Origin: Candidatus Saccharimonadota bacterium
GTDB lineage: Bacteria; Patescibacteriota; Saccharimonadia; Saccharimonadales; UBA10212
Length of the DNA: 46,542 nt
Assembly: GCA_016187175.1 (NCBI GenBank)
Contig: JACPKG010000003.1
Span: 1-46,542, forward strand
Direction: 5' to 3'
In this document: positions 1-18,210 of the stretch, piece by piece
Layout of the letters: the number at the start of each line of letters is the position of its first letter
Position numbering within the stretch: the first letter of the stretch is position 1
Notes under the pieces: model-generated
What the model saw: only the letters and a program-made list of their open reading frames with translations
The model's database searches: none
What the model was told of the DNA's origin: nothing
Made by a program: the position numbers and the translations under genes

Positions 1-1822
1 TTCGGTGCGACATTTTTGGTTTTGGCGCCCGAACATAAAATATTCGCCTCAGGCGAATTAAGTATTTCTAAAGAAGTCAAAGATTACATAGAACAGGCTG
101 AACGCAAATCGGAAATCGACCGTATGGAAACCGAGCGTGAGAAGACCGGTGTATTTACCGGTATTTACGCGATCAATCCGGCCAACAAAGAAAAAATTCC
201 CATTTGGGTAGCTGACTATGTTCTACTTGGCTACGGCACTGGCGCCATCATGGCCGTCCCGGCCCACGATGAGCGCGACTGGCAGTTTGCTAAAAAATTC
301 AAGTTGCCGATTGTCCATGTTTACGACCAGAAAGGCGCTGACCCCAAAAGCTGCTATCACGGCGAAGGCATAGTCAAAAACTCCGGACGCTACGATGGCA
401 TGACAACCAGCGATATGCGCGAAAAAATAGTCAAAGATCTGGCCAAAGCTGGCGTAGCTAAAGAAAAAATAAACTACAAAATTCGTGATTGGCTGATCAG
501 CCGGCAGCGTTACTGGGGCGCGCCGATTCCAATCATTCATTGTCCCAAAGATGGCACAGTGCCTGTGCCGGAAGAAAATTTACCAGTGGTTTTGCCAAAG
601 ATGAAAAGCTATGAGCCAAGTGGTGAGGGCCACGGCCCATTGGCTAATGTGCCGGAATTCGTCAATGTCAAATGTCCAAAATGTGGTGGTAAGGCTAAGC
701 GTGAAACAGACACCATGGATGGTTTTGCCTGTAGCAGTTGGTATTTCCTGCGGTTTGCCGACCCCCACAACAGCCAATATGCTTTTGACGAGCAAAAAAC
801 AAAATTCTGGCTGCCGGTTGATGATTATATTGGTGGTGCCGAACATGCCGTCATGCACCTGCTGTACGCCCGTTTTTGGACAAAAGTTATGTTTGACGAG
901 GGCTTGATCAGCTTTGACGAGCCTTTCACTACGCTGCACAACCAGGGCATGATTCTAGCTCCTGATGGGCGCAAAATGAGTAAAAGCTGGAACAATACCA
1001 TTGAGCCGGACAACTTAATCGAACAAGGCTATGGCGCAGATTCTATCCGTCTGTTGGAGCTCTTTATCGGCCCATGGGACCAAACTGCTAACTGGAGTGT
1101 TGAAGGATTGGGTGGCACTTTCCGTTTTCTACAGCGAGTTTGGACGTTGGTTCAAGAATACTCAGATGCAACAAGCAACAAGCAACAAGTAACAAGCTCT
1201 GGGCATAATGCCGAGCTGGAAACACAGATTATGCGGACGGTTCATAAAGCGATCAAGAAAGTCAGTAAAGACTTGAACGAACTTGGCTTTAACACAGCCA
1301 TTGCCGCCCTAATGGAATGTGTCAACCAGCTTTACAAAGTTAAAAACCAAAATGGAATGTGTCAACCAGCTTTACAAAGTTAAAAACCAAGGCCCTTCGA
1401 CCCATTCGATAAGTACTCAGGGTCGCCCTGAGTCTATCGAACGAGCGACTAGGCTCAGGGGGAGCAACTTTTCACTGGTTCAGGAGGCCTGGAGAGACGG
1501 GCTGATTGCTTTAACACAACTGCTGGCACCTTTCGCGCCACACATAGCTGAAGAAATTTGGGCCGAACTGGGACAAGCTGGTTCGGTACATATTAGCCAA
1601 TGGCCAGCTTGGAATGAAGAATTAGTCCAAGAAGACCTAATAACAATTGTTGTTCAGGTCAACGGTAAAGTCCGTGCGGAACTACTACTACCATCTGATA
1701 CAACTGAAAAAGAGGCTGTTGAAGCTGCCAAAAATGACGACAAAGTCGCAAAAAATATAGCCGGTAAAAAGATAAAAAAAGCAATCTACGTCCCCGGCCG
1801 GCTGGTTAGCCTGGTGGTTTAA
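1..1822 (+). CDS. leuS: Leucyl-tRNA synthetase, C-terminal part (gene starts before the window); frame broken by a 40-bp tandem duplication at 1311-1390
   Basis: ORFs 16..1383 and 1319..1822; class I synthetase motifs (DGRKMSKSWNN, HNQGMILAPDGRKMSKS, WSVEGLGGTFRF) and anticodon-binding C-terminus (APHIAEEIWAELG, VQVNGKVRAEL). Removing one 40-bp copy joins the two frames. Confidence 0.95.
1168..1195 (+). repeat. Heptamer array (GCAACAA x3, GTAACAA) inside leuS
   Basis: Direct reading; 4 units of 7 bp. Confidence 0.9.
1311..1390 (+). repeat. Perfect 2 x 40-bp tandem duplication inside leuS
   Basis: aatggaatgtgtcaaccagctttacaaagttaaaaaccaa at 1311-1350 and again at 1351-1390. Confidence 0.98.
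1391..1460 (+). repeat. Dispersed palindromic element inside leuS (TTCGATA-agt-ACTCAGGG-tcg-CCCTGAGT-c-TATCGAA)
   Basis: Near-perfect hairpin at 1405-1441, translated in frame as GPSTHSISTQGRPESIERATRLRGS. Confidence 0.8.
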
Positions 1823-6805: not shown

Positions 6806-7417
6806 ATGTTTAAGTTGCCGCCACTTGGTTACGATTTTGCTGCACTAGAACCCTACATTGATGCCAAGACAATGGAAATTCATCACGGCAAGCACCATGG
6901 AGCTTATGTCGAGAAACTAAATACCGCTCTGGAAAAGTATCCCAAGCTGCAAAATAAAAAAATCGAAGACTTGCTAATCAATATAAAAAACGTTCCCGAT
7001 GATATTAGCACAGCTGTCCAAAACAACGGCGGCGGCCACCATAACCATACACTGTTCTGGGAAAGTATGAAACCGGGAGGATCCCCGTACCATTCGGTGC
7101 AGGGCACAGCCCAAAACGTACCCGAAGCTATCACTACAACGTTCGGTAGCTTAGATAACTTCAAAGCCAAGATGACCGAAGCCGCCATCAACCGTTTTGG
7201 CTCCGGCTGGGCCTGGCTGGTCAAAAATAGTAACAATCTAGAGGTTTATTCCACGGCCAACCAGGACAGCCCGTTGATGGAAGGTAAAACACCAATTCTT
7301 GGGCTAGATGTCTGGGAACACGCCTACTATTTGAAATACCAAAACCGCCGCCCCGATTATGTCGAAGCTTGGTGGCAGGTTGTGAACTGGGACGTTGTTA
7401 GCGAGCGCTTAAGTTAG
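6806..7417 (+). CDS. sodA: Superoxide dismutase (Fe/Mn)
   Basis: [43 protein letters not shown]. Confidence 0.95.
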
Positions 7418-7425
7418 TCTAGGTC

Positions 7426-7671
7426 TTACTTTAGACTCTTTTTTTCACGGACTTTTTTCATAGATTTATCGATGAGTTGATTTATTATTTTTTTAAATCT
7501 TTGTAAGTGGCGGTCTGCCCACTCGAACTCCAGCGATAGAATAAAAAGTCCACCGGCTGTAACAAGGACTCCGGGACCGGGCAAGGGAATTAAAATCAGG
7601 CCAATAATAAGTACGGGCAGACCCAGAAGCGCAATAATTATCTTACGCAGGGTTCTATAAGTCTTTCCCAT
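7426..7671 (-). CDS. PGPGW-type small transmembrane protein
   Basis: PLPGPGVLVTAGGLFILSLEFEWADR motif. Confidence 0.75.
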   Translation of the reverse strand: MGKTYRTLRKIIIALLGLPVLIIGLILIPLPGPGVLVTAGGLFILSLEFEWADRHLQRFKKIINQLIDKSMKKVREKKSLK

Positions 7672-7672
7672 A

Positions 7673-8173
7673 CTATAGATTTTGTATTTTAAATAGGAAA
7701 CCTACGATAATACCCAAAGCTGTAGCCAACCCCCCGATAATCAAAATTTTCAGGCCGCCTTTGAAAGCACTAACTCGAAGAATACGACCTTTAACGTACC
7801 CCAATAAGAATAGAGTAGCAAGAGCAGCTAATACGCTGGTGATTAGAGAGGTAGGATAATCCAGAATCAGTATTGGTGTAAGAGGAATTAAGCCTGCCAG
7901 CAAGTATGATGAGAACATCAACAGGCCACTAACGGAAGCGCTCTCGGTGTTACGATCTATTTTGTCCAATCCTTTTACGGCGTCGTCACTTAAATATTCG
8001 CCGGCACCCATAGACACAGCTTCGATGATAATCGCTACAACCCCACCAAGAATAACAAGGCGATTACTGTTGGCCCCGACGCTTAGGCCAGCTATCAAAC
8101 CGGTTGTCGAGACCAGGCTGTCTTCTACACCAAAAAGCGTACTGCGCAGGTATTCTCGTTTAATTTGTTTCAC
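7673..8173 (-). CDS. VIT1/CCC1-family transporter-like protein
   Basis: YLRSTLFGVEDSLVSTTGLIAGLSVGA, SMGAGEYLSDDA. Confidence 0.85.
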   Translation of the reverse strand: MKQIKREYLRSTLFGVEDSLVSTTGLIAGLSVGANSNRLVILGGVVAIIIEAVSMGAGEYLSDDAVKGLDKIDRNTESASVSGLLMFSSYLLAGLIPLTPILILDYPTSLITSVLAALATLFLLGYVKGRILRVSAFKGGLKILIIGGLATALGIIVGFLFKIQNL

Positions 8174-8325
8174 TAGACTTTATTATAGTAGTTTTGATCG
8201 ATAAGATATAACCTGAGGAAGTTACTAGGGAATGACCTCATCGAAACATGACCTTTTAGCTCATCATAAAATTAATAACCATAGTTCATAACTCTAGATT
8301 TCACTTCATGGTCAACTGCCTCTCT

Positions 8326-8364
8326 CAATCTGCCAAGCAAACAGCGTCTTGGCCTGGCAGATTG
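8326..8364 (+). other. Stem-loop CAATCTGCCA ... TGGCAGATTG just upstream of tRNA-Gln
   Basis: Perfect 10-bp inverted repeat. Confidence 0.6.
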
Positions 8365-8387
8365 TATATGGGAAAATAAATACGTAT

Positions 8388-8461
8388 TCCGGGATCGTCT
8401 AACGGTAGGACGCTAGACTCTGGATCTGGTAATCTTGGTTCGAGCCCAAGTCCCGGAGCCA
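8388..8461 (+). tRNA. trnQ: tRNA-Gln, anticodon CUG, CCA encoded
   Basis: Acceptor TCCGGGA/TCCCGGA, anticodon stem CTAGA/TCTGG, loop CTCTGGA (anticodon CTG at 8420-8422), TTCGAGCCC T-loop region. Confidence 0.93.
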
Positions 8462-8747
8462 TTCGACTCATCCGCTAACACTTACTCGCTCATGGCCTAC
8501 GGCCGCGAGGTGTAAAACCAAATTGAATTATTTATAGTGCTGGGGTCCTAGGATCATAGGCTCTAATCCCTCTTTTTCAGCCAGCTCTTGCAGTTTCATA
8601 AAATAGTACTATAGTTATGCTTATTCATTTATGTAATAAATATAGGCCAAAACACACAGTATGAGTAATTCGTTCATAGAACAATTCCCTCAATTTAGAA
8701 CTCCGGGCCAATTAAGAAAAGATGAAATTATATTAGGAGGAGTTGCT

Positions 8748-9971
8748 ATGACAAACGGTTTTGATAAAAAACAAGGAGATCAACCAGTACTCAATGCTAG
8801 TCCTGGAATCCTCAAAGAACCTGGCGGTAGTTCGGTAAACAACCCGCCTGCCGCAGATGAGTTGGAACCTGTTTCTTCTGAATCAGGTGGAGTAATCGTT
8901 GGAAAACCTGAAAAAATAGAAGGCACAGAAGGATTTTATAATCCAGCAGCTTGGCGGTACGTTGACAAGTACGGTGTCCCTAAGATTTGTTTATTGGGTC
9001 GTGATGTGAAAATGCCCGACCAAGCTTCTGCTACCGACGATAAACCTGTTGAATTTACTGCCGATGGAGATCCGATTGTCGGGGGCGGGCCAGATGTTGG
9101 TCCTATAGTACTTAAGGTTATAGGCCCAGATGGTAGGATTATACCCGAACTCACAAAAATAGTTTTTGAACCCAAAGTCGGGGGACCCTCGTTTGAAGAT
9201 TTCAGAGCATTATCGTTAGACGATGGCACGCTTATTTTTGGACTGACTTGGGTAGAACCCGACGGTACGCCTTTCCCTGCAATGCTGGTTACAACAACCG
9301 AAGAATTGATGGAACCAGGAACATCTGTAGAACCTAAAATTGTCAAAGATCTAGGTAGTGGCGACCAGACAACTCCCCTAGATGAAGAAGGTGTCAAAAT
9401 ACCAGGAAAAAACCTCACGCCGATTGATAGACATTCTTCAGATACAGATACGTATTCTTTCATGTTTAGGTCGCAAGGCAAAGAAAATCGTCATCGACTC
9501 CAAGTATTTTATGTTAAGGAAGGCGTAGTGACACATCGGTATGATATAAAGCTTCCTACGGATAAGGAGTGGGGTGAGTGGCAAATGGGCACGGGCGCGC
9601 CTCCAGAATGGACTGATAAGACCCGCCGAGAGGCTATTACTCTGATCCATGGGATCACAATAGTAAACGGGGAGTACGTATATACGTTCGCTTCTGCCAG
9701 GATGTATAGGGATCAAGATGACGTGCTATCGTTAGACAATATAGGCAAACCACTACTGACTTCAGCTTTGTTTGACGATGTAGTTCAACGTCATCGAGGG
9801 AGAAACGCATTTTATATTGATGGGTGGGTACCTCATCGTGACGAGGATGGCAACCTTGTTCTTCTGGAGGTGTTCGGCAGTCCAGGCGATTCACGCACGG
9901 ATAGAGTTTTCTTGGATCCGCGTGAAATAATCAGGCAATGGAAGAGGCCTGAATTGGCCGTGGCCGCTTAA
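8748..9971 (+). CDS. Hypothetical protein; possibly beta-propeller/glycosidase-like
   Basis: Long ORF; AGGAGG at ~8736-8741 supports the start MTNGFDKK; fold call rests on weak motif resemblance (GTGAPP ... HGITIVNGEYVYTFASARM). Confidence 0.6.
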   Translation: MTNGFDKKQGDQPVLNASPGILKEPGGSSVNNPPAADELEPVSSESGGVIVGKPEKIEGTEGFYNPAAWRYVDKYGVPKICLLGRDVKMPDQASATDDKPVEFTADGDPIVGGGPDVGPIVLKVIGPDGRIIPELTKIVFEPKVGGPSFEDFRALSLDDGTLIFGLTWVEPDGTPFPAMLVTTTEELMEPGTSVEPKIVKDLGSGDQTTPLDEEGVKIPGKNLTPIDRHSSDTDTYSFMFRSQGKENRHRLQVFYVKEGVVTHRYDIKLPTDKEWGEWQMGTGAPPEWTDKTRREAITLIHGITIVNGEYVYTFASARMYRDQDDVLSLDNIGKPLLTSALFDDVVQRHRGRNAFYIDGWVPHRDEDGNLVLLEVFGSPGDSRTDRVFLDPREIIRQWKRPELAVAA

Positions 9972-10036
9972 CTTAAAGTAAGAACAGAGTTTTTGCTGTC
10001 GAATTGTCCAGACCGGTAGGCTCAGCCAATAATTTC

Positions 10037-10176
10037 TTGACAGGCTTTTGATCATATGCCACCATGCTAGGCATGCGCAACCAACTAATTAGTGAGGTAA
10101 TCATTATTAACCCAGCCTAGCGGGTAGTTTTTTGCATATTACAAACGAAAAATAACTCCCGCAAAATGCGGGAGTT
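10037..10176 (+). promoter_or_regulatory. Candidate branched-chain amino acid attenuator leader of ilvB
   Basis: TTGACA at 10037; mini-ORF MLGMRNQLISEVIIINPA (10064-10120, or from ATG 10073); GCGGGTAGTT (10120-10129) can pair with the 5' arm of the terminator. Confidence 0.75.
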
Positions 10177-10180
10177 TTTA
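10154..10180 (+). terminator. Rho-independent terminator AACTCCCGCA-AAA-TGCGGGAGTT-TTTA upstream of ilvB
   Basis: Perfect 10-bp stem and U run. Confidence 0.9.
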
Positions 10181-10240
10181 TATCAAGCAGGCCAAATCAT
10201 TTGCTTAAATATGAAAATAATGAGATAATAAAGAAAAGTA

Positions 10241-12040
10241 ATGAGACGTAATTATACCGGCGCTGAAGCCACGATAAAAACCCTTGAAGAACTAGGGGTA
10301 ACGTACATATTTGGCCTTTCGGGCGGAGCCATCCTACCGTTTACTGATGCTGTTCACAGACTTGCAACAGCTGGTGAGAGCGAAATTAATTTGGTTTATA
10401 CGCGTCACGAGCAAGGCGCGATTCATATGGCCGAAGGTTACACCAGTGCCAGCGGTAAACCTGGGGTGGTGTTGGTAACTAGCGGCCCGGGTGCCGGTAA
10501 TATAATATCCGGCTTGCTGGACGCTAAGCTAGACAGACGGCCAGTGCTGGCAATCACCGGCCAAGTCCCCACCTATATGATCAATAAAGAGGGTTTTCAA
10601 GAGGCTCCTGTCATGGCTATATCTAGACCGCTGGTGAAGTGGAATCACCAACCCAAGGATTCCAATAAACTGCCAAGAGCTGTAGTTAAAGCGTTACGTA
10701 TCGCAACCAGCGGTCGCCCGGGTCCAGTTTTACTTGATGTACCGAAAAATATTGGCGAAGGAGATTTTACGGGAAGTCTAGAGCTAGCAATTGAGCGACC
10801 CGGCAAACTTGCTAAAATTAATCCTTACAAAGCCGTAATCAGGGCTAGGGATGCTATTAGAGAATATAGGGCTAACAAGGCTACCGGGGCTATTGTCAAG
10901 GCCTGGCGGACGGCCGAGAGGCCAGTTATATTAGCCGGTCATGGTGTATTAATTTCGGGAGGTACTGAAGAGTTACTAAAATTGGCAGAACAAGAAGATA
11001 CACCTGTTACTACAACTTTATTGGGTAAAGGCGCTTTTCCGGAAACTCATAGACTTAGCCTGGGAATGTTAGGCATGCACGGCACAGCTTATGCTAACAA
11101 AGCCATTTTAGGAGCTGACTTTGTACTTAATCTCGGCTCGCGCTTTGATGATCGGATCGTTGGTGATCCCAAGAAGTTTTGCAAAGGCGCCTTTATAGCC
11201 CACGTTGATATTGATCGCACACAATTTGGTAAGATGATTAAGCCAAACAAGAAAGTTGCCACTGACGGTCGTATATTTATCAAAACAATCCTTGGTGAAT
11301 TGGCCTTAAATGGCAAAGAGAAACGGTCTGACCGCTCTAAATGGAATGAAAAAATCGAAGAATTTAAGGTGCAATACCCTCTGAGCTATGAAACCAGCCA
11401 AGGACTGACAGCCCAAGAAGTGATTGACGCCGTTTATAAAGTCAGTGGTGGCGATGCCATCGTAACGGCCGACGTCGGCCAGCACCAAATGTGGGCTGCC
11501 CAGTTTTATAAAACCAATAGACCCAACCACTGGATAACTTCTGGGGGTGCCGGCACTATGGGTTTTGGTTTGCCGGCGGCTATCGGGGCTCAATTTGCGA
11601 AACCTCATGAACAAGTTATTGCTTTTGTCGGCGACGGCGGTTTTCAAATGACGTCGTATGAACTAACTACTGCCCGTAAACATAATCTGCCAATCAAAGT
11701 AATTATCTTAGACAATCAATATTTAGGCATGGTCCGTCAATGGCAAGAAGTTTTTTACGATGACCGCGAAAGTGCAGTGAACCTGGAAGATAACCCTGAT
11801 TTTGTAATGTTGGCTGAGAGCCATGGCGCAGTCGCAATAAGAGTTGAGGATCGTGAAGATCTGCAGGCAGCGCTGGAAAAAGCTTTCTCAGTTAATGATC
11901 GACCGGTAGTTGTGCACGCTTGTGTTAATAAAACCGATAATGTTTACCCTTTTATTCCTTCAGGAAGACCATACACCGATATGCTCTTAGGGCCACCGCC
12001 ACCAAATGAAAAATTGCCAACTCCGACGGGAAGCACATAG
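10241..12040 (+). CDS. ilvB: Acetolactate synthase large subunit
   Basis: TPP-enzyme domains; VTSGPGAGNIISGLLDAKLDRRPVLAITGQVP, GDGGFQMTSYELTTARKHNLPIKVIILDNQYLGMVRQWQE. Confidence 0.94.
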   Translation: MRRNYTGAEATIKTLEELGVTYIFGLSGGAILPFTDAVHRLATAGESEINLVYTRHEQGAIHMAEGYTSASGKPGVVLVTSGPGAGNIISGLLDAKLDRRPVLAITGQVPTYMINKEGFQEAPVMAISRPLVKWNHQPKDSNKLPRAVVKALRIATSGRPGPVLLDVPKNIGEGDFTGSLELAIERPGKLAKINPYKAVIRARDAIREYRANKATGAIVKAWRTAERPVILAGHGVLISGGTEELLKLAEQEDTPVTTTLLGKGAFPETHRLSLGMLGMHGTAYANKAILGADFVLNLGSRFDDRIVGDPKKFCKGAFIAHVDIDRTQFGKMIKPNKKVATDGRIFIKTILGELALNGKEKRSDRSKWNEKIEEFKVQYPLSYETSQGLTAQEVIDAVYKVSGGDAIVTADVGQHQMWAAQFYKTNRPNHWITSGGAGTMGFGLPAAIGAQFAKPHEQVIAFVGDGGFQMTSYELTTARKHNLPIKVIILDNQYLGMVRQWQEVFYDDRESAVNLEDNPDFVMLAESHGAVAIRVEDREDLQAALEKAFSVNDRPVVVHACVNKTDNVYPFIPSGRPYTDMLLGPPPPNEKLPTPTGST

Positions 12041-13592: not shown

Positions 13593-14486
13593 GGCTCAGT
13601 CAACTAACATGGAACAAGACTCATAGCTAGGTAGTTTTGCGGACTTTTCAAGAGCTCTGGGAAGTTATGCCTGGCTTCCCATTCTTTTAAGATGACATCC
13701 AGGTATTTGGTCGGTACACAGCCATAGAGTTTTCTAAGGTAACGCTTGAGAGCACTCCAGACTTTCTCTACGGGGTTAGTGCCGGCATACCTGCCCAGGC
13801 TATGGTTCCAGGACTCATGGGAGTCACCATAAAACTCTAGCTTCTCATAGCCCCACCAGGCATCAGTCACCACTAAAGCACCCTCTTTAAACTGCTTCAC
13901 TAACAAAACTGGTTAAGACTTCGGCTGAGCGATTGGCTATAGCCTGCAATTTTAGCTGGTTATCCAGGGCAATGGCCCCAGCCACGATGACCTGGTCCTG
14001 CTTACTCCGGAGTTTACCAAAATAGGATTCGTCACTGATGACTACCTCCGCCAGCACAGCTTTGGCTGAACTCGGCAAGTTAGTCCTGAAACGGCTATAC
14101 CAACGGGCAACTGTGGTGTAGCTGACTCGAGCTAGCAACCTAGCCGTATCCGGACTCTTACGGTTCTGCGCCAGTACCACAGCAGGACGAACAGCTGCCG
14201 GGGTGACAGTTTCAGGCCATACAGCCAGCTGCCACGGTAGGCCGTAGACCTGAGCTTTTTGCGGCAGAACTTGCACCACAGATACTTGCCTTGCTAGTTC
14301 TCTGCCAGGCAGCTACTGCAGCCTGGACAAGCTAGGCCTTCACCGAACACTAAGTTGTTAAGGATCCGCCAGCACTTTAGATTACTAACATAGACTGGTA
14401 ATTTGTTCATTGGGACAACTCCTCTTGAATTAAGTTAGTTTTACCAACCTAATTCTACGAGTTGTTCCACTTTAGTTTAACGAGCC
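13593..14486 (-). mobile_element. Degenerate IS1595-like insertion sequence (ISXO2-type DDE transposase)
   Basis: Transposase fragments 13604..13906 and 13887..14279 on the minus strand; imperfect terminal inverted repeats GGCTCAGTCAACTAACATGGAACAA (13593) vs GGCTCGTTAAACTAAAGTGGAACAA (reverse complement ending 14486). Confidence 0.82.
13604..14412 (-). pseudogene. IS1595-like transposase, frame-disrupted
   Basis: VISDESYFGKLRSKQDQVIVAGAI + GALVVTDAWWGYEKL ... HNFPELLKSPQNYL; N-terminal Cys-rich segment MNKLPVYVSNLKCWRILNNLVFGEGLACPGCSSCLAEN ends at a stop. Confidence 0.8.
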
Positions 14487-14583
14487 ATTTGCTGGACTGT
14501 AAATCAGTATAAAGCCGGTGCTATAATTGGCTAGCTCAGCAAGTTTATAGGGGTGAAGTGCTTAAGCTAAACGGAATGTAGAT

Positions 14584-15987
14584 ATGATAGTAATGAAGTT
14601 TGGTGGGAGCTCGGTGGGCGACACCAGGCGTATACAGCGAGTAGCTCAACTAATCAACGAGCTGCAAGCTAAAGAACCGGTTGTGGTTGTGGTGTCGGCC
14701 ATCGGTGGTGTGACTGATTTGCTGCTTACTGCAGCCACGGCGGCCGCTGGCAAAAACCAATCCAAGCTCACTGAGAGTCTTAAGTCCTTAAGGGGTCTTC
14801 ATTTGCAAGTGGCAGCAGGCTTAAAGTTAACGCAGTCGGCCCAAACTGAGCTTAACGATTTAGTTGATGAAAGACTTGCTAAAGCGGGACAATTACTGCA
14901 GAGTGTCTACACTCTTGGTGAGTTAACTCCTAGAGCGCTTGATGCTATTTTATCGTACGGTGAAAGGCTAAATATCCATCTAGTGGCTAACGCCATAGGA
15001 CCCAAAGCTCGTCCGTTGGAGGCCAGCAACTTTATTGTCACTGACGATCGTTTTGGCGCAGCCCAGCCTCAGCTGGAAAAATCTGTCAGGCGAACAAAGT
15101 TGGTAATTTCGCCACTTATAAAACGTAATTTTATTCCAGTCGTCACTGGTTATATTGGCGCCACAGCTGAAGGTGTCATAACCACTCTTGGCCGGGGCGG
15201 TTCTGACTATTCAGCGACTATTTTAGGCTACTGTCTGGGCGCCAGAGAAGTCTGGATTTGGACGGATGTCGATGGCGTGATGACGGCCGATCCAAAAGTC
15301 GTTAGAGATGCCCACACTATTGCTGAGCTTACCTACAACGAAGCCGCCGAGCTTTCTTACTTTGGAGCTAAGGTACTGCATCCTCTTACAATGGTTCCGG
15401 TCGCCCTTAAAAATATACCAATCCGGATTAAAAATACTTTTAAGCCTGAAATTGAAGGCACCAAAATCGCCAAAAAAATTTCTGAAAACGGAACCAGTAC
15501 CAAGGCCATTGCCACGATTGGCAACCTTTCATTGATTACCGTTCAGGGTAAAGGCATGTTGGGCGTACCCGGAGTAGCGGCCAGAATGTTTGACGCCATC
15601 GCCGCAGAGGAAATTAATGTGATGTTTATTTCTCAGGCCTCATCGGAGTTTAACATTTCTTTCGTCGTCCAGTACGGCGATGGTCGCCACGCGGTTAAAG
15701 TACTTAAAGAAATCTTTCGATACGAGCTTGATATCAGAACCATTGAGACTGTCAAAATTGAAGAAAATCTGGCTATTATCGCCGTTGTGGGTGAAGGTAT
15801 GAGAGGACATCCTGGTATTGCCGGCCAAACGTTTTCGGCGCTTGGTAATGCTAAAGTGAACATTATCGCTATAGCTCAGGGTTCTTCGGAGCGCAATATA
15901 TCGCTGGTTATTCACCAGCACGAAGTGCCCAAAGCTGTTAAAAGCATACATAATCAATTCCATCTAGCTAAGAAACAAAATGGTTAA
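14584..15987 (+). CDS. lysC: Aspartokinase
   Basis: MKFGGSSVGDTRRI, GRGGSDYSATILGYCLGA, ACT domains. Confidence 0.96.
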   Translation: MIVMKFGGSSVGDTRRIQRVAQLINELQAKEPVVVVVSAIGGVTDLLLTAATAAAGKNQSKLTESLKSLRGLHLQVAAGLKLTQSAQTELNDLVDERLAKAGQLLQSVYTLGELTPRALDAILSYGERLNIHLVANAIGPKARPLEASNFIVTDDRFGAAQPQLEKSVRRTKLVISPLIKRNFIPVVTGYIGATAEGVITTLGRGGSDYSATILGYCLGAREVWIWTDVDGVMTADPKVVRDAHTIAELTYNEAAELSYFGAKVLHPLTMVPVALKNIPIRIKNTFKPEIEGTKIAKKISENGTSTKAIATIGNLSLITVQGKGMLGVPGVAARMFDAIAAEEINVMFISQASSEFNISFVVQYGDGRHAVKVLKEIFRYELDIRTIETVKIEENLAIIAVVGEGMRGHPGIAGQTFSALGNAKVNIIAIAQGSSERNISLVIHQHEVPKAVKSIHNQFHLAKKQNG

Positions 15988-17038
15988 AGAAGTTTTTAAA
16001 TATTATTTACTTCATATGGGGGTAGGCAATGTTGGCAGAGCTGTGTTGCAGCAAGTTAGAGACAATCGGCAGTGGGTTCAACGGACGTATGGCATTGATC
16101 TTATATACTGCGGACTTTTTGATAGCCAGGCTAGTGTATTCAATGCCCAAGGTTTATCCTTGGCTCAAATAAATGCTTTCCCAAGCTCTGGTATTGAGGA
16201 TATAAACCGAAGTATCAGACTTATGCCTAAACCTTTCGCGCTAATAGACACTACTGCTTCCGAACAGATTCTGCCCCTACTAGCTGAAGCTGCAGCTAGG
16301 GGTGGCGCAGTCATTTTAGCCAATAAGAATCCACTGGCAGCCGGTCAGAGTGATTTTAAGAAGTTGTCAAAATTAGCTGGTCGGCGGCTTTTTTACGAGA
16401 CTACCGTCGGTGCTGGCCTGCCGGTAATCCAAACTCTGAAAACGCTTATAGCCACCGGCGACAAGATTATCAGGATAGAGGGTTGTTTTAGCGGCACGCT
16501 AGGCTTTATCTTTTCACAGCTGCAAAAAGGAGACTCACTTTCAGAGGCGGTATTACAAGCCAAAAAATTGGGGTTCACCGAACCCGATCCGCGTGATGAT
16601 TTATCTGGCCTTGACGTTGCGCGCAAAGCCCTAATTTTGGCGCGTACACTTGGTGCTCATATGGAGATGACCGACATAAAAATCAAAAAAATCTACCCCC
16701 GGGCTATGGAGAAACTATCTGCTGGGGAGTTTTTAAACAAGCTACCCGAACTAGACAGTCTATTTAAAGCCAAAATCAATTTGGCCAGGCAGCGGGCTAA
16801 AACTCTGCGGTTTGTGGCCCAAGTTGAGCACGGTGATTACCGAGTAGGTCTGAGAGAAGTTGATCTAAATTCGGACATCGGTAGCTTAAATGGCTCTGAT
16901 AATATTATTATATTTAAAACCAGACGCTATTCTAAACAGCCGCTGGTTATTAAAGGTCCGGGTGCCGGCGTTGAGGTTACTGCTGCGGGAGTGTTTGACG
17001 ACATCTTGCAGGCGGCTCAGCAGGGAGCAAAACTATGA
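15980..17038 (+). CDS. hom: Homoserine dehydrogenase
   Basis: GVGNVGRAVLQQ, ANKNPLA, YETTVGAGLPVIQTLKTL, GCFSGTLGFI. Confidence 0.94.
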   Translation: MVKEVFKYYLLHMGVGNVGRAVLQQVRDNRQWVQRTYGIDLIYCGLFDSQASVFNAQGLSLAQINAFPSSGIEDINRSIRLMPKPFALIDTTASEQILPLLAEAAARGGAVILANKNPLAAGQSDFKKLSKLAGRRLFYETTVGAGLPVIQTLKTLIATGDKIIRIEGCFSGTLGFIFSQLQKGDSLSEAVLQAKKLGFTEPDPRDDLSGLDVARKALILARTLGAHMEMTDIKIKKIYPRAMEKLSAGEFLNKLPELDSLFKAKINLARQRAKTLRFVAQVEHGDYRVGLREVDLNSDIGSLNGSDNIIIFKTRRYSKQPLVIKGPGAGVEVTAAGVFDDILQAAQQGAKL

Positions 17039-18117
17039 AAAAATTGAAGGTCGGTATGCTAGGGGCCACCGGCATGGTCGGCCAGCGCTTCATTGCTTTA
17101 CTGGCTAATCATCCGTGGTTTGAAGTTGCCTCTTTAGCTGCCTCATCTCGCTCGGCCGGTAAGACCTATCAAGAAGCTGTTGCCGGACGCTGGTCAGTGA
17201 GCTCGGCCATACCCCCGACTATCCGGAAGATAAAAGTCCAAGCCGTCGAAGCCGATTTAGGGCAAATCACTAGTGAAGTAGATTTGGTATTTAGCGCCCT
17301 GGATATGGATAAAAAGGCTATCCAAGATCTAGAAATTACTTACGCAACGGCTTGGGTGCCGGTTATTTCTAATAATTCGGCCCATCGCTGGACGCAGGAC
17401 GTACCAGTACTCATGCCAGAAATCAATCCGGACCATGTCGGACTTATCGATGTTCAACGAAAAAACAGGGGCTGGAAAAAAGGCTTAATTGCCGTTAAGC
17501 CAAACTGCTCAATCCAGTCCTACGTTTCTATTTTGACCGCTCTGCGCAAATATCAGCCAACGGCTATCAACGTCACCAGTTTACAAGCAATATCTGGCGC
17601 AGGTAAAACTTTCGAAAGTTGGCTTCAGATGATCGATAATGTCATTCCTTTTATCAGCAACGAAGAAGAAAAATCAGCCAAAGAGCCGATGAAAATCTGG
17701 GGAAAATTATCTGGACGATCAATTAAATTGGCCAAAGCGCCAGAAATAGCGGCCGCTTGTATTCGAATACCGGTATCCGATGGTCATATGGCAGATGTAG
17801 CCGTCAACTTTAAACAAAAGCCAACCAAAACTCAGATTTTAAAAGCCGTGGCTAACTTTGGCAATCCTTTGTCACGCTTAAAGTTACCATCTGCCCCAAA
17901 GCAGTTAATCCACTATTTTGAGCAGGAGGACCGACCCCAAACAGCGCTCGACCGTGATTTAGAAAACGGCATGGGGATTGCTATGGGTAGGCTAAGAAAA
18001 GACACACATTTCGATTGGCGGTTTATAGCTCTTTCGCACAACACTATTCGTGGAGCCGCCGGCGGAGCTATCTTGATGGCCGAGCTACTTGTTAAAAAAG
18101 GTTATATTTCAAGCTAG
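17035..18117 (+). CDS. asd: Aspartate-semialdehyde dehydrogenase
   Basis: VGMLGATGMVGQRFI, KPNCSIQSYV, RIPVSDGHMADV. Confidence 0.94.
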   Translation: MKKLKVGMLGATGMVGQRFIALLANHPWFEVASLAASSRSAGKTYQEAVAGRWSVSSAIPPTIRKIKVQAVEADLGQITSEVDLVFSALDMDKKAIQDLEITYATAWVPVISNNSAHRWTQDVPVLMPEINPDHVGLIDVQRKNRGWKKGLIAVKPNCSIQSYVSILTALRKYQPTAINVTSLQAISGAGKTFESWLQMIDNVIPFISNEEEKSAKEPMKIWGKLSGRSIKLAKAPEIAAACIRIPVSDGHMADVAVNFKQKPTKTQILKAVANFGNPLSRLKLPSAPKQLIHYFEQEDRPQTALDRDLENGMGIAMGRLRKDTHFDWRFIALSHNTIRGAAGGAILMAELLVKKGYISS

Positions 18118-18210
18118 ATACGTAAGAAAGAGAAATTTTATACAGCTCACTTTTTACACTTATGCTAGACTTTTTTTGCCCCAAGGTGGTTGGGTTTGAA
18201 GAGGATCGAA

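What the first reader, a model, noticed from the sequence alone, without database searches (positions are those of the whole stretch)
10037..10180. Ribosome-mediated attenuator upstream of ilvB
Leader peptide M(LGM)RNQLISEVIIINPA is rich in Leu/Ile/Val codons, notably GTA ATC ATT ATT before the stop. GCGGGTAGTT (10120-10129) can pair with AACTCCCGC of the terminator (10154-10162), giving an antiterminator/terminator switch. This is classical BCAA attenuation logic, unexpected in a streamlined CPR-like genome.
Basis: partly seen in the sequence, partly recalled or inferred. Interest (0 to 1): 0.7.

Follow-up and report, generated by a model that had tools for sequence, protein, structure and literature searches.

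The report
Isoleucine-sensing attenuator before ilvB
A very small, reduced bacterial genome carries a genuine-looking ribosome-operated RNA switch that should turn on one enzyme of isoleucine/valine synthesis when isoleucine or valine runs short, and dozens of relatives carry similar switches even though most of those checked lack the rest of the pathway.

Summary
At 10037-10180 there is a promoter-like -35, a short leader ORF with a GTA-ATC-ATT-ATT run, a segment overlapping its stop codon that can pair with the 5' arm of a strong intrinsic terminator, then ilvB. None of 2000 shuffles gave the ORF plus terminator. Relatives decide it. In the same class, 14 of 16 ilvB loci have an upstream leader peptide rich in Ile/Val/Leu codons; 13 have a terminator, and in 12 of those the antiterminator complementarity beats shuffles, often with unrelated sequence. 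None of 80 ilvB loci outside the class passed the same scan. A second leader type in 55 of 387 genomes of the order has Leu runs before leuA-like genes (13/13) and mostly Ile/Val runs before ilvB/ilvA/ridA (10/12), with compensatory changes in its helices. The mechanism is classical; the oddity is the setting. The window genome lacks ilvC, ilvD, ilvN, ilvA and ilvE homologues, so the switch controls an orphan acetolactate synthase. No Rfam family matches at its threshold; no published description in Patescibacteria was found in the open-access library.

The parts
10037..10042 (+). -35 box TTGACA
   Evidence: Sequence; identical in L004/L115, and a -35-like hexamer at the same spacing upstream of most in-class leaders
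10060..10065 (+). weak -10 CACCAT, 17-nt spacing; predicts TSS at about 10072-10073
   Evidence: Spacing from -35; 7 nt before ATG 10073. 6-9 nt in 11 of 14 ilvB leaders. Only 3 of 6 matches to TATAAT: inferred
10073..10120 (+). leader peptide ORF MRNQLISEVIIINPA (probably leaderless; an in-frame ATG at 10064 is the alternative start)
   Evidence: MCNQLISEVIIINPA in the same-family genome G006
10097..10108 (+). sensor codons GTA ATC ATT ATT (Val-Ile-Ile-Ile)
   Evidence: Ile/Val runs in the same role in in-class relatives
10110..10116 (+). segment 1 (ACCCAGC), pairs with 10120-10125 to form the protector (1:2) hairpin
   Evidence: RNA fold
10120..10129 (+). segment 2 (GCGGGUAGUU), antiterminator 5' side, overlapping the leader stop
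   Evidence: -13.6 kcal/mol, p=0.002; invariant in G006
10154..10162 (+). segment 3 (AACUCCCGC), shared by antiterminator and terminator
10154..10179 (+). intrinsic terminator (segments 3:4, 10-bp stem 10154-10176) and U run
   Evidence: -16.2 kcal/mol, z=-4.6
10241..12040 (+). ilvB, biosynthetic-type acetolactate synthase large subunit, 599 aa
   Evidence: TIGR00118 645 bits over cut-off 538; catalytic HEQG and TPP GDGG..DN motifs aligned

Best explanation
A ribosome-mediated transcription attenuator controls ilvB. RNA polymerase starts at about 10073 and the ribosome initiates on the 5'-terminal AUG. If Ile-tRNA (or Val-tRNA) is charged, the ribosome runs to the stop codon, covers segment 2 (10120-10129), the 3:4 hairpin (10154-10176) forms and transcription ends before ilvB. 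If the ribosome stalls on the Val-Ile-Ile-Ile codons (10097-10108), its leading edge ends at about 10118. It then blocks segment 1 but leaves segment 2 free to pair with segment 3, so no terminator forms and ilvB is transcribed. If the leader is not translated, the 1:2 hairpin sequesters segment 2 and termination is the default. Shown by sequence, energy and relatives: leader ORF, sensor codons, terminator, antiterminator. Inferred: TSS, leaderless initiation, ribosome footprint geometry, and actual response to amino acids.
For: Anatomy and coordinates. Joint chance 0/2000 shuffles. In-class relatives: 14/16 ilvB loci with BCAA-rich leader peptides, 13 with a terminator; the automatic criterion fires in 0/80 ilvB loci outside the class. 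Antiterminator complementarity p<0.05 in 12 of 13, placed within -11 to +10 nt of the leader stop, with unrelated sequences in different groups, e.g. GGATCCGCTC in L085 against GGTTGAAGCC in L088. In the nearest relative (G006) segments 1, 2 and the sensor are invariant, and changes in the terminator stem keep pairing through G-U. In the second leader type, Leu runs precede leuA-like genes 13/13 and Ile/Val runs precede ilvB/ilvA/ridA 10/12, Fisher p=2e-5; helices A:A' and B:B' are 97% and 94% paired with 4 and 5 pairs showing double changes, 0/300 shuffles as good.
Against: The -10 box is weak and the TSS unmeasured. The window's leader (15 aa) is short and shares no sequence with the other groups, so its own switch is supported directly by only two close sequences. 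The antiterminator (-12.8) is weaker than the terminator (-16.2 kcal/mol), so the model needs co-transcriptional kinetics. The leaders used in the statistics are partly related, so the combined p-value is too small. ilvB cannot by itself make Ile or Val in this genome.
Confidence: 0.88

Rival explanations
1. An ordinary intergenic terminator for the upstream gene (8661-9971), with a chance short ORF in front of it.
For: The terminator lies downstream of a same-strand gene; ORFs with four I/L/V in a row occur in 4% of shuffles.
Against: 0/2000 shuffles have both features. Promoter, leader and terminator are 91% identical to G006, far above ilvB (48% aa). BCAA leaders recur before ilvB across the class.
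Confidence: 0.04
2. A translation-independent RNA switch (T-box, ppGpp riboswitch or protein-binding leader) with an incidental ORF.
For: Antiterminator/terminator architecture is shared by all these systems.
Against: No Rfam family reaches its gathering score in the leader. The region from 10073 to the terminator is about 80 nt, too short for a T-box. Sensor codons track the downstream gene, which a translated leader explains and a ligand-binding RNA does not.
Confidence: 0.04
3. A leader peptide that regulates differently: by translational coupling, or the released peptide acting in trans, rather than by transcription termination.
For: Locus L002 has a BCAA-rich leader but no terminator found by the scan. 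In Streptomyces coelicolor, mutating candidate ilvB leader codons had no effect (PMC1262725).
Against: 13 of 14 leaders are followed by a terminator whose 5' arm can pair with the stop-codon region.
Confidence: 0.04

Closest known systems
Corynebacterium ilvBNC attenuator (ilvB-II motif; Morbach 2000, Narunsky 2023, PMC10272879)
   Same: 15-17 aa BCAA-rich leader ORF, terminator and antiterminator, about 150 nt upstream of ilvB. The Morbach title reports leader peptide formation without a ribosome binding site, as inferred here.
   Different: Different phylum; there ilvB sits with ilvN and ilvC, here ilvB stands alone.
Enterobacterial ilvB / ilvGMEDA leader-peptide attenuators
   Same: Leader peptide with BCAA codon runs, overlapping stop region, mutually exclusive hairpins.
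   Different: Those control a complete pathway; the window genome lacks ilvC, ilvD, ilvN and ilvA homologues. Comparison is from general knowledge.
ilvB-OMG and Leptospira ilvB motifs (described in PMC10272879)
   Same: ilvB-associated RNA with BCAA-rich uORF.
   Different: No Rfam match at gathering score for the leaders of the window or of 15 related loci; whether each of these motifs is in Rfam 15 was not checked.

Membership tests
Ribosome-mediated (leader-peptide) transcription attenuator of BCAA genes | Short leader ORF with codons for the regulating amino acid | tested here: met
   VIII run; conserved in kind in 14/16 in-class loci
Ribosome-mediated (leader-peptide) transcription attenuator of BCAA genes | Intrinsic terminator between leader and structural gene | tested here: met
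   10154-10176 plus U run
Ribosome-mediated (leader-peptide) transcription attenuator of BCAA genes | Antiterminator mutually exclusive with the terminator, starting near the leader stop | tested here: met
   p=0.002 for the window; p<0.05 in 12/13 loci
Ribosome-mediated (leader-peptide) transcription attenuator of BCAA genes | Protector (1:2) hairpin that makes termination the default | tested here: inconclusive
   Predicted in the MFE of 10073-10180 and invariant in G006, but only two sequences and z=-0.97 for 10073-10140
Ribosome-mediated (leader-peptide) transcription attenuator of BCAA genes | Transcription starts upstream of or at the leader start codon | not testable with these tools
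   Promoter-like sites only
Ribosome-mediated (leader-peptide) transcription attenuator of BCAA genes | Expression rises when the cognate aminoacyl-tRNA is scarce, dependent on leader translation | not testable with these tools
   Needs reporter or in vitro transcription-translation
Any Rfam 15 amino-acid leader or ilvB RNA family | Covariance-model match at gathering score | tested here: not met
   None for the leaders; best in the window is Thr_leader 27.6 bits against cut-off 55
T-box | Rfam T-box match | tested here: not met
   No T-box match even at E<=10 in 9960-10260

The most novel reading that the evidence does not exclude
A class of reduced, probably host-dependent bacteria uses an undescribed set of leaderless BCAA-sensing attenuators with exchangeable sensor codons (Leu before leuA-like genes, Ile/Val before ilvB/ilvA). 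These drive only the first, condensing or deaminating steps of BCAA synthesis in cells that lack the later steps. The enzymes would then serve something other than self-sufficient BCAA synthesis: making intermediates for a partner that returns amino acids, or feeding an unrecognised downstream route.
Probability: 0.4. Interest if true: 0.78.

Novelty: new member of a known kind. Interest (0 to 1): 0.58.

Why it matters
Leader-peptide attenuation depends on ribosomes keeping pace with RNA polymerase, so a conserved set of such switches is evidence that transcription and translation are coupled in these tiny-genome bacteria. The switches should respond to BCAA shortage yet control enzymes whose products most of the checked genomes cannot turn into BCAA by known routes, which makes the purpose of their partial pathways directly testable. 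The GLCFxMVEA-type leader, present in 55 of 387 genomes searched, looks like an uncatalogued RNA family that could be added to annotation pipelines.

Tried and rejected
1) Long-range pairing GCUAGGC (about 10066-10072) with GCCUAGC in the fold of 10048-10185: rejected, because it needs a TSS upstream of the predicted one and the bases are not conserved in G006. 2) The promoter-like pair TTGTCC/AATAAT at 10004-10033: possible, but the number of such sites is what shuffles give (2 found, 1.9 expected), and the TTGACA 17-nt arrangement recurs before the related leaders. 3) Known riboswitch, T-box or Rfam leader: none. 4) Acetoin pathway as the purpose of IlvB: no alpha-acetolactate decarboxylase in any of 17 genomes. 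5) The leader as a uniquely ultraconserved element: G000 and G006 share other stretches at 93% DNA identity, so 91% is not unique; it is only much higher than ilvB. 6) A DNA search with the window's leader found a clear match only in G006; the other hits were short pieces of about 18-42 bases.

Full report
What is there. Between the end of an unannotated gene (8661-9971) and ilvB (10241-12040) lies, in order, a TTGACA box (10037-10042), a short ORF ending at TAG 10118-10120 with GTA ATC ATT ATT at 10097-10108, GCGGGTAGTT at 10120-10129, and a 10-bp terminator 10154-10176 followed by a T run. The downstream protein is a biosynthetic-type acetolactate synthase large subunit, 645 bits against a cut-off of 538 for TIGR00118, with the catalytic HEQG and TPP motifs aligned to solved structures.

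Chance. In 2000 dinucleotide shuffles of the intergenic region, 88 had an ATG ORF of 8-40 codons with four consecutive I/L/V, and none also had a stem of at least 8 pairs with a T run at the right distance. The antiterminator pairing of 10120-10129 with 10154-10162 is -13.6 kcal/mol, p=0.002 against shuffles of the donor segment. Folding gives terminator -16.2 and, when the terminator 3' arm is left out, antiterminator -12.8 kcal/mol; the fold of the whole leader from 10073 shows a 1:2 hairpin (10110-10116 with 10120-10125) plus terminator.

Start site. The TTGACA box with a 17-nt spacer puts a weak -10 (CACCAT) 7 nt before ATG 10073. In 11 of 14 ilvB leaders the best promoter-like pair ends 6-9 nt before the leader ATG, and in 45 of 53 leaders of the second type with a scoring promoter 6-10 nt. 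So the mRNAs probably begin at or within a few bases of the AUG, and the window's peptide is MRNQLISEVIIINPA. A leader peptide without a ribosome binding site has been reported for C. glutamicum ilvBNC (title of Morbach 2000, cited in PMC10272879).

Geometry (inferred; general knowledge of ribosome footprints). With the last Ile codon (10106-10108) in the A site the leading edge reaches about 10118, so segment 1 is covered and segment 2 free. With the stop codon in the A site it reaches about 10130, so segment 2 is covered and the terminator can form.

Relatives with ilvB. ilvB is rare: 13 of 393 genomes in the order at E<=1e-150, with two more loci from another family of the class and one more divergent locus in the window's own family. 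Of the 16 loci, 14 have a BCAA-rich leader peptide upstream of ilvB or of an operon in which a small ORF and/or ridA comes before ilvB, e.g. MAQASVIILVVIPSPPARR, MSVSQQIIILSVLTLPHKRR, MSLNNNVLSIIVLVPRGVVC, MSFNLLSIVVISILGLSGLCFTMVEATEQ. Exceptions are L003 (genome G027, the one genome with ilvC, ilvD and ilvN) and L094. Thirteen have a terminator within 20-35 nt of the leader stop; in 12 the antiterminator beats shuffles at p<0.05, always near the leader stop. The same automatic scan found nothing in 80 ilvB loci outside the class, although that scan missed some in-class leaders too. In-class IlvB proteins form one clade (support 98) next to Verrucomicrobiota.

Nearest relative. In G006 (same family) the promoter-leader-terminator block is 91% identical over 160 nt, while IlvB is 48% identical at protein level. 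Sensor codons, segment 1 and segment 2 are identical; changes fall mostly in the promoter spacer, the -10/ATG spacer, the second leader codon, the terminator loop and stem positions kept by G-U pairs.

A second, larger set. A pattern from the C-terminal part of some leaders (GLCFxMVEA at peptide level) matched 55 of 387 genomes of the order, and the reversed-pattern control matched none of the genomes. The 61 copies are leader ORFs, nearly all with a BCAA-rich stretch just before the motif; those read in full are followed by a terminator-like hairpin. Downstream of 13 classified copies is a LeuA/HMGL-like gene (2-isopropylmalate synthase models match strongly but below their equivalog cut-offs; one has the LeuA dimerisation domain): the longest run is Leu in 13/13. 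Near ilvB, ilvA or ridA it is not Leu in 10 of 12 (Fisher p=2e-5). Helix A:A' is 97% paired and B:B' (antiterminator) 94%, with 4 and 5 pairs showing changes on both sides, not reached in 300 shuffles; sliding the partner drops pairing to 15-56%. This matching of codon to gene is the strongest argument that these leaders are read by ribosomes. The window's leader does not carry this motif; it belongs to the same kind by design, not by sequence.

Metabolic setting. In the window genome (663,662 bases, 93% complete) no homologue was found for ilvC, ilvD, alpha-acetolactate decarboxylase, the IlvN C-terminal domain, IlvA, or class IV aminotransferases, while control genomes matched in 13-14 of 14 for ilvC, ilvD, IlvN and aminotransferase IV. 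Several other in-class operons read ilvB, a small ACT protein, ridA, ilvA. Among the 17 genomes checked (16 with ilvB), ilvC was absent from 15 and ilvD from 16. So in the window genome the switch controls a lone first step. What the product is for is open.

Literature. Open-access searches for attenuation or leader peptides in Patescibacteria/CPR and for acetolactate synthase or threonine dehydratase in Saccharibacteria gave nothing on such switches; subscription papers were not searched. BCAA leader peptides before ilvB are known in Actinobacteria and Proteobacteria.

Limits.

Verdict. The feature is a ribosome-mediated attenuator with high likelihood, ordinary in mechanism, unusual in host lineage and in what it controls.

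Noticed in passing
L123-L179 (61 copies with the four ilvB loci): GLCFxMVEA-type leaders in 55 of 387 genomes of the order, before leuA-like, ilvA, ridA, ilvB, and also before variable small proteins often followed by rplJ; apparently an uncatalogued RNA/leader family.
   Followed up: partly
window 14492-14608: Region upstream of the aspartokinase gene (lysC-hom-asd cluster) is 87% identical to G006 although the genes are about 67%: a conserved promoter/5' UTR, possibly regulatory.
   Followed up: no
window 1311-1390: Perfect 40-bp tandem duplication inside the leucyl-tRNA synthetase gene shifts the reading frame and splits it into two ORFs; real or an assembly error.
   Followed up: partly
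window 7112-8405 versus 14902-18120: Mosaic divergence between G000 and G006: 93% DNA identity in one stretch, 67% in another nearby, suggesting recent exchange.
   Followed up: no
window 13604-14279: ISXO2/IS1595-like transposase fragment (Pfam match for 13604-13906) next to an overlapping ORF in another frame, between the VIT1-like gene and lysC; probably a broken element.
   Followed up: no
window 8661-9971: 436-aa protein with no Pfam or NCBIfam match directly upstream of the attenuator.
   Followed up: no
L001/L004 ilvB: IlvB of the window's family sits on long branches (0.8 and 0.98), evolving much faster than its leader.
   Followed up: no
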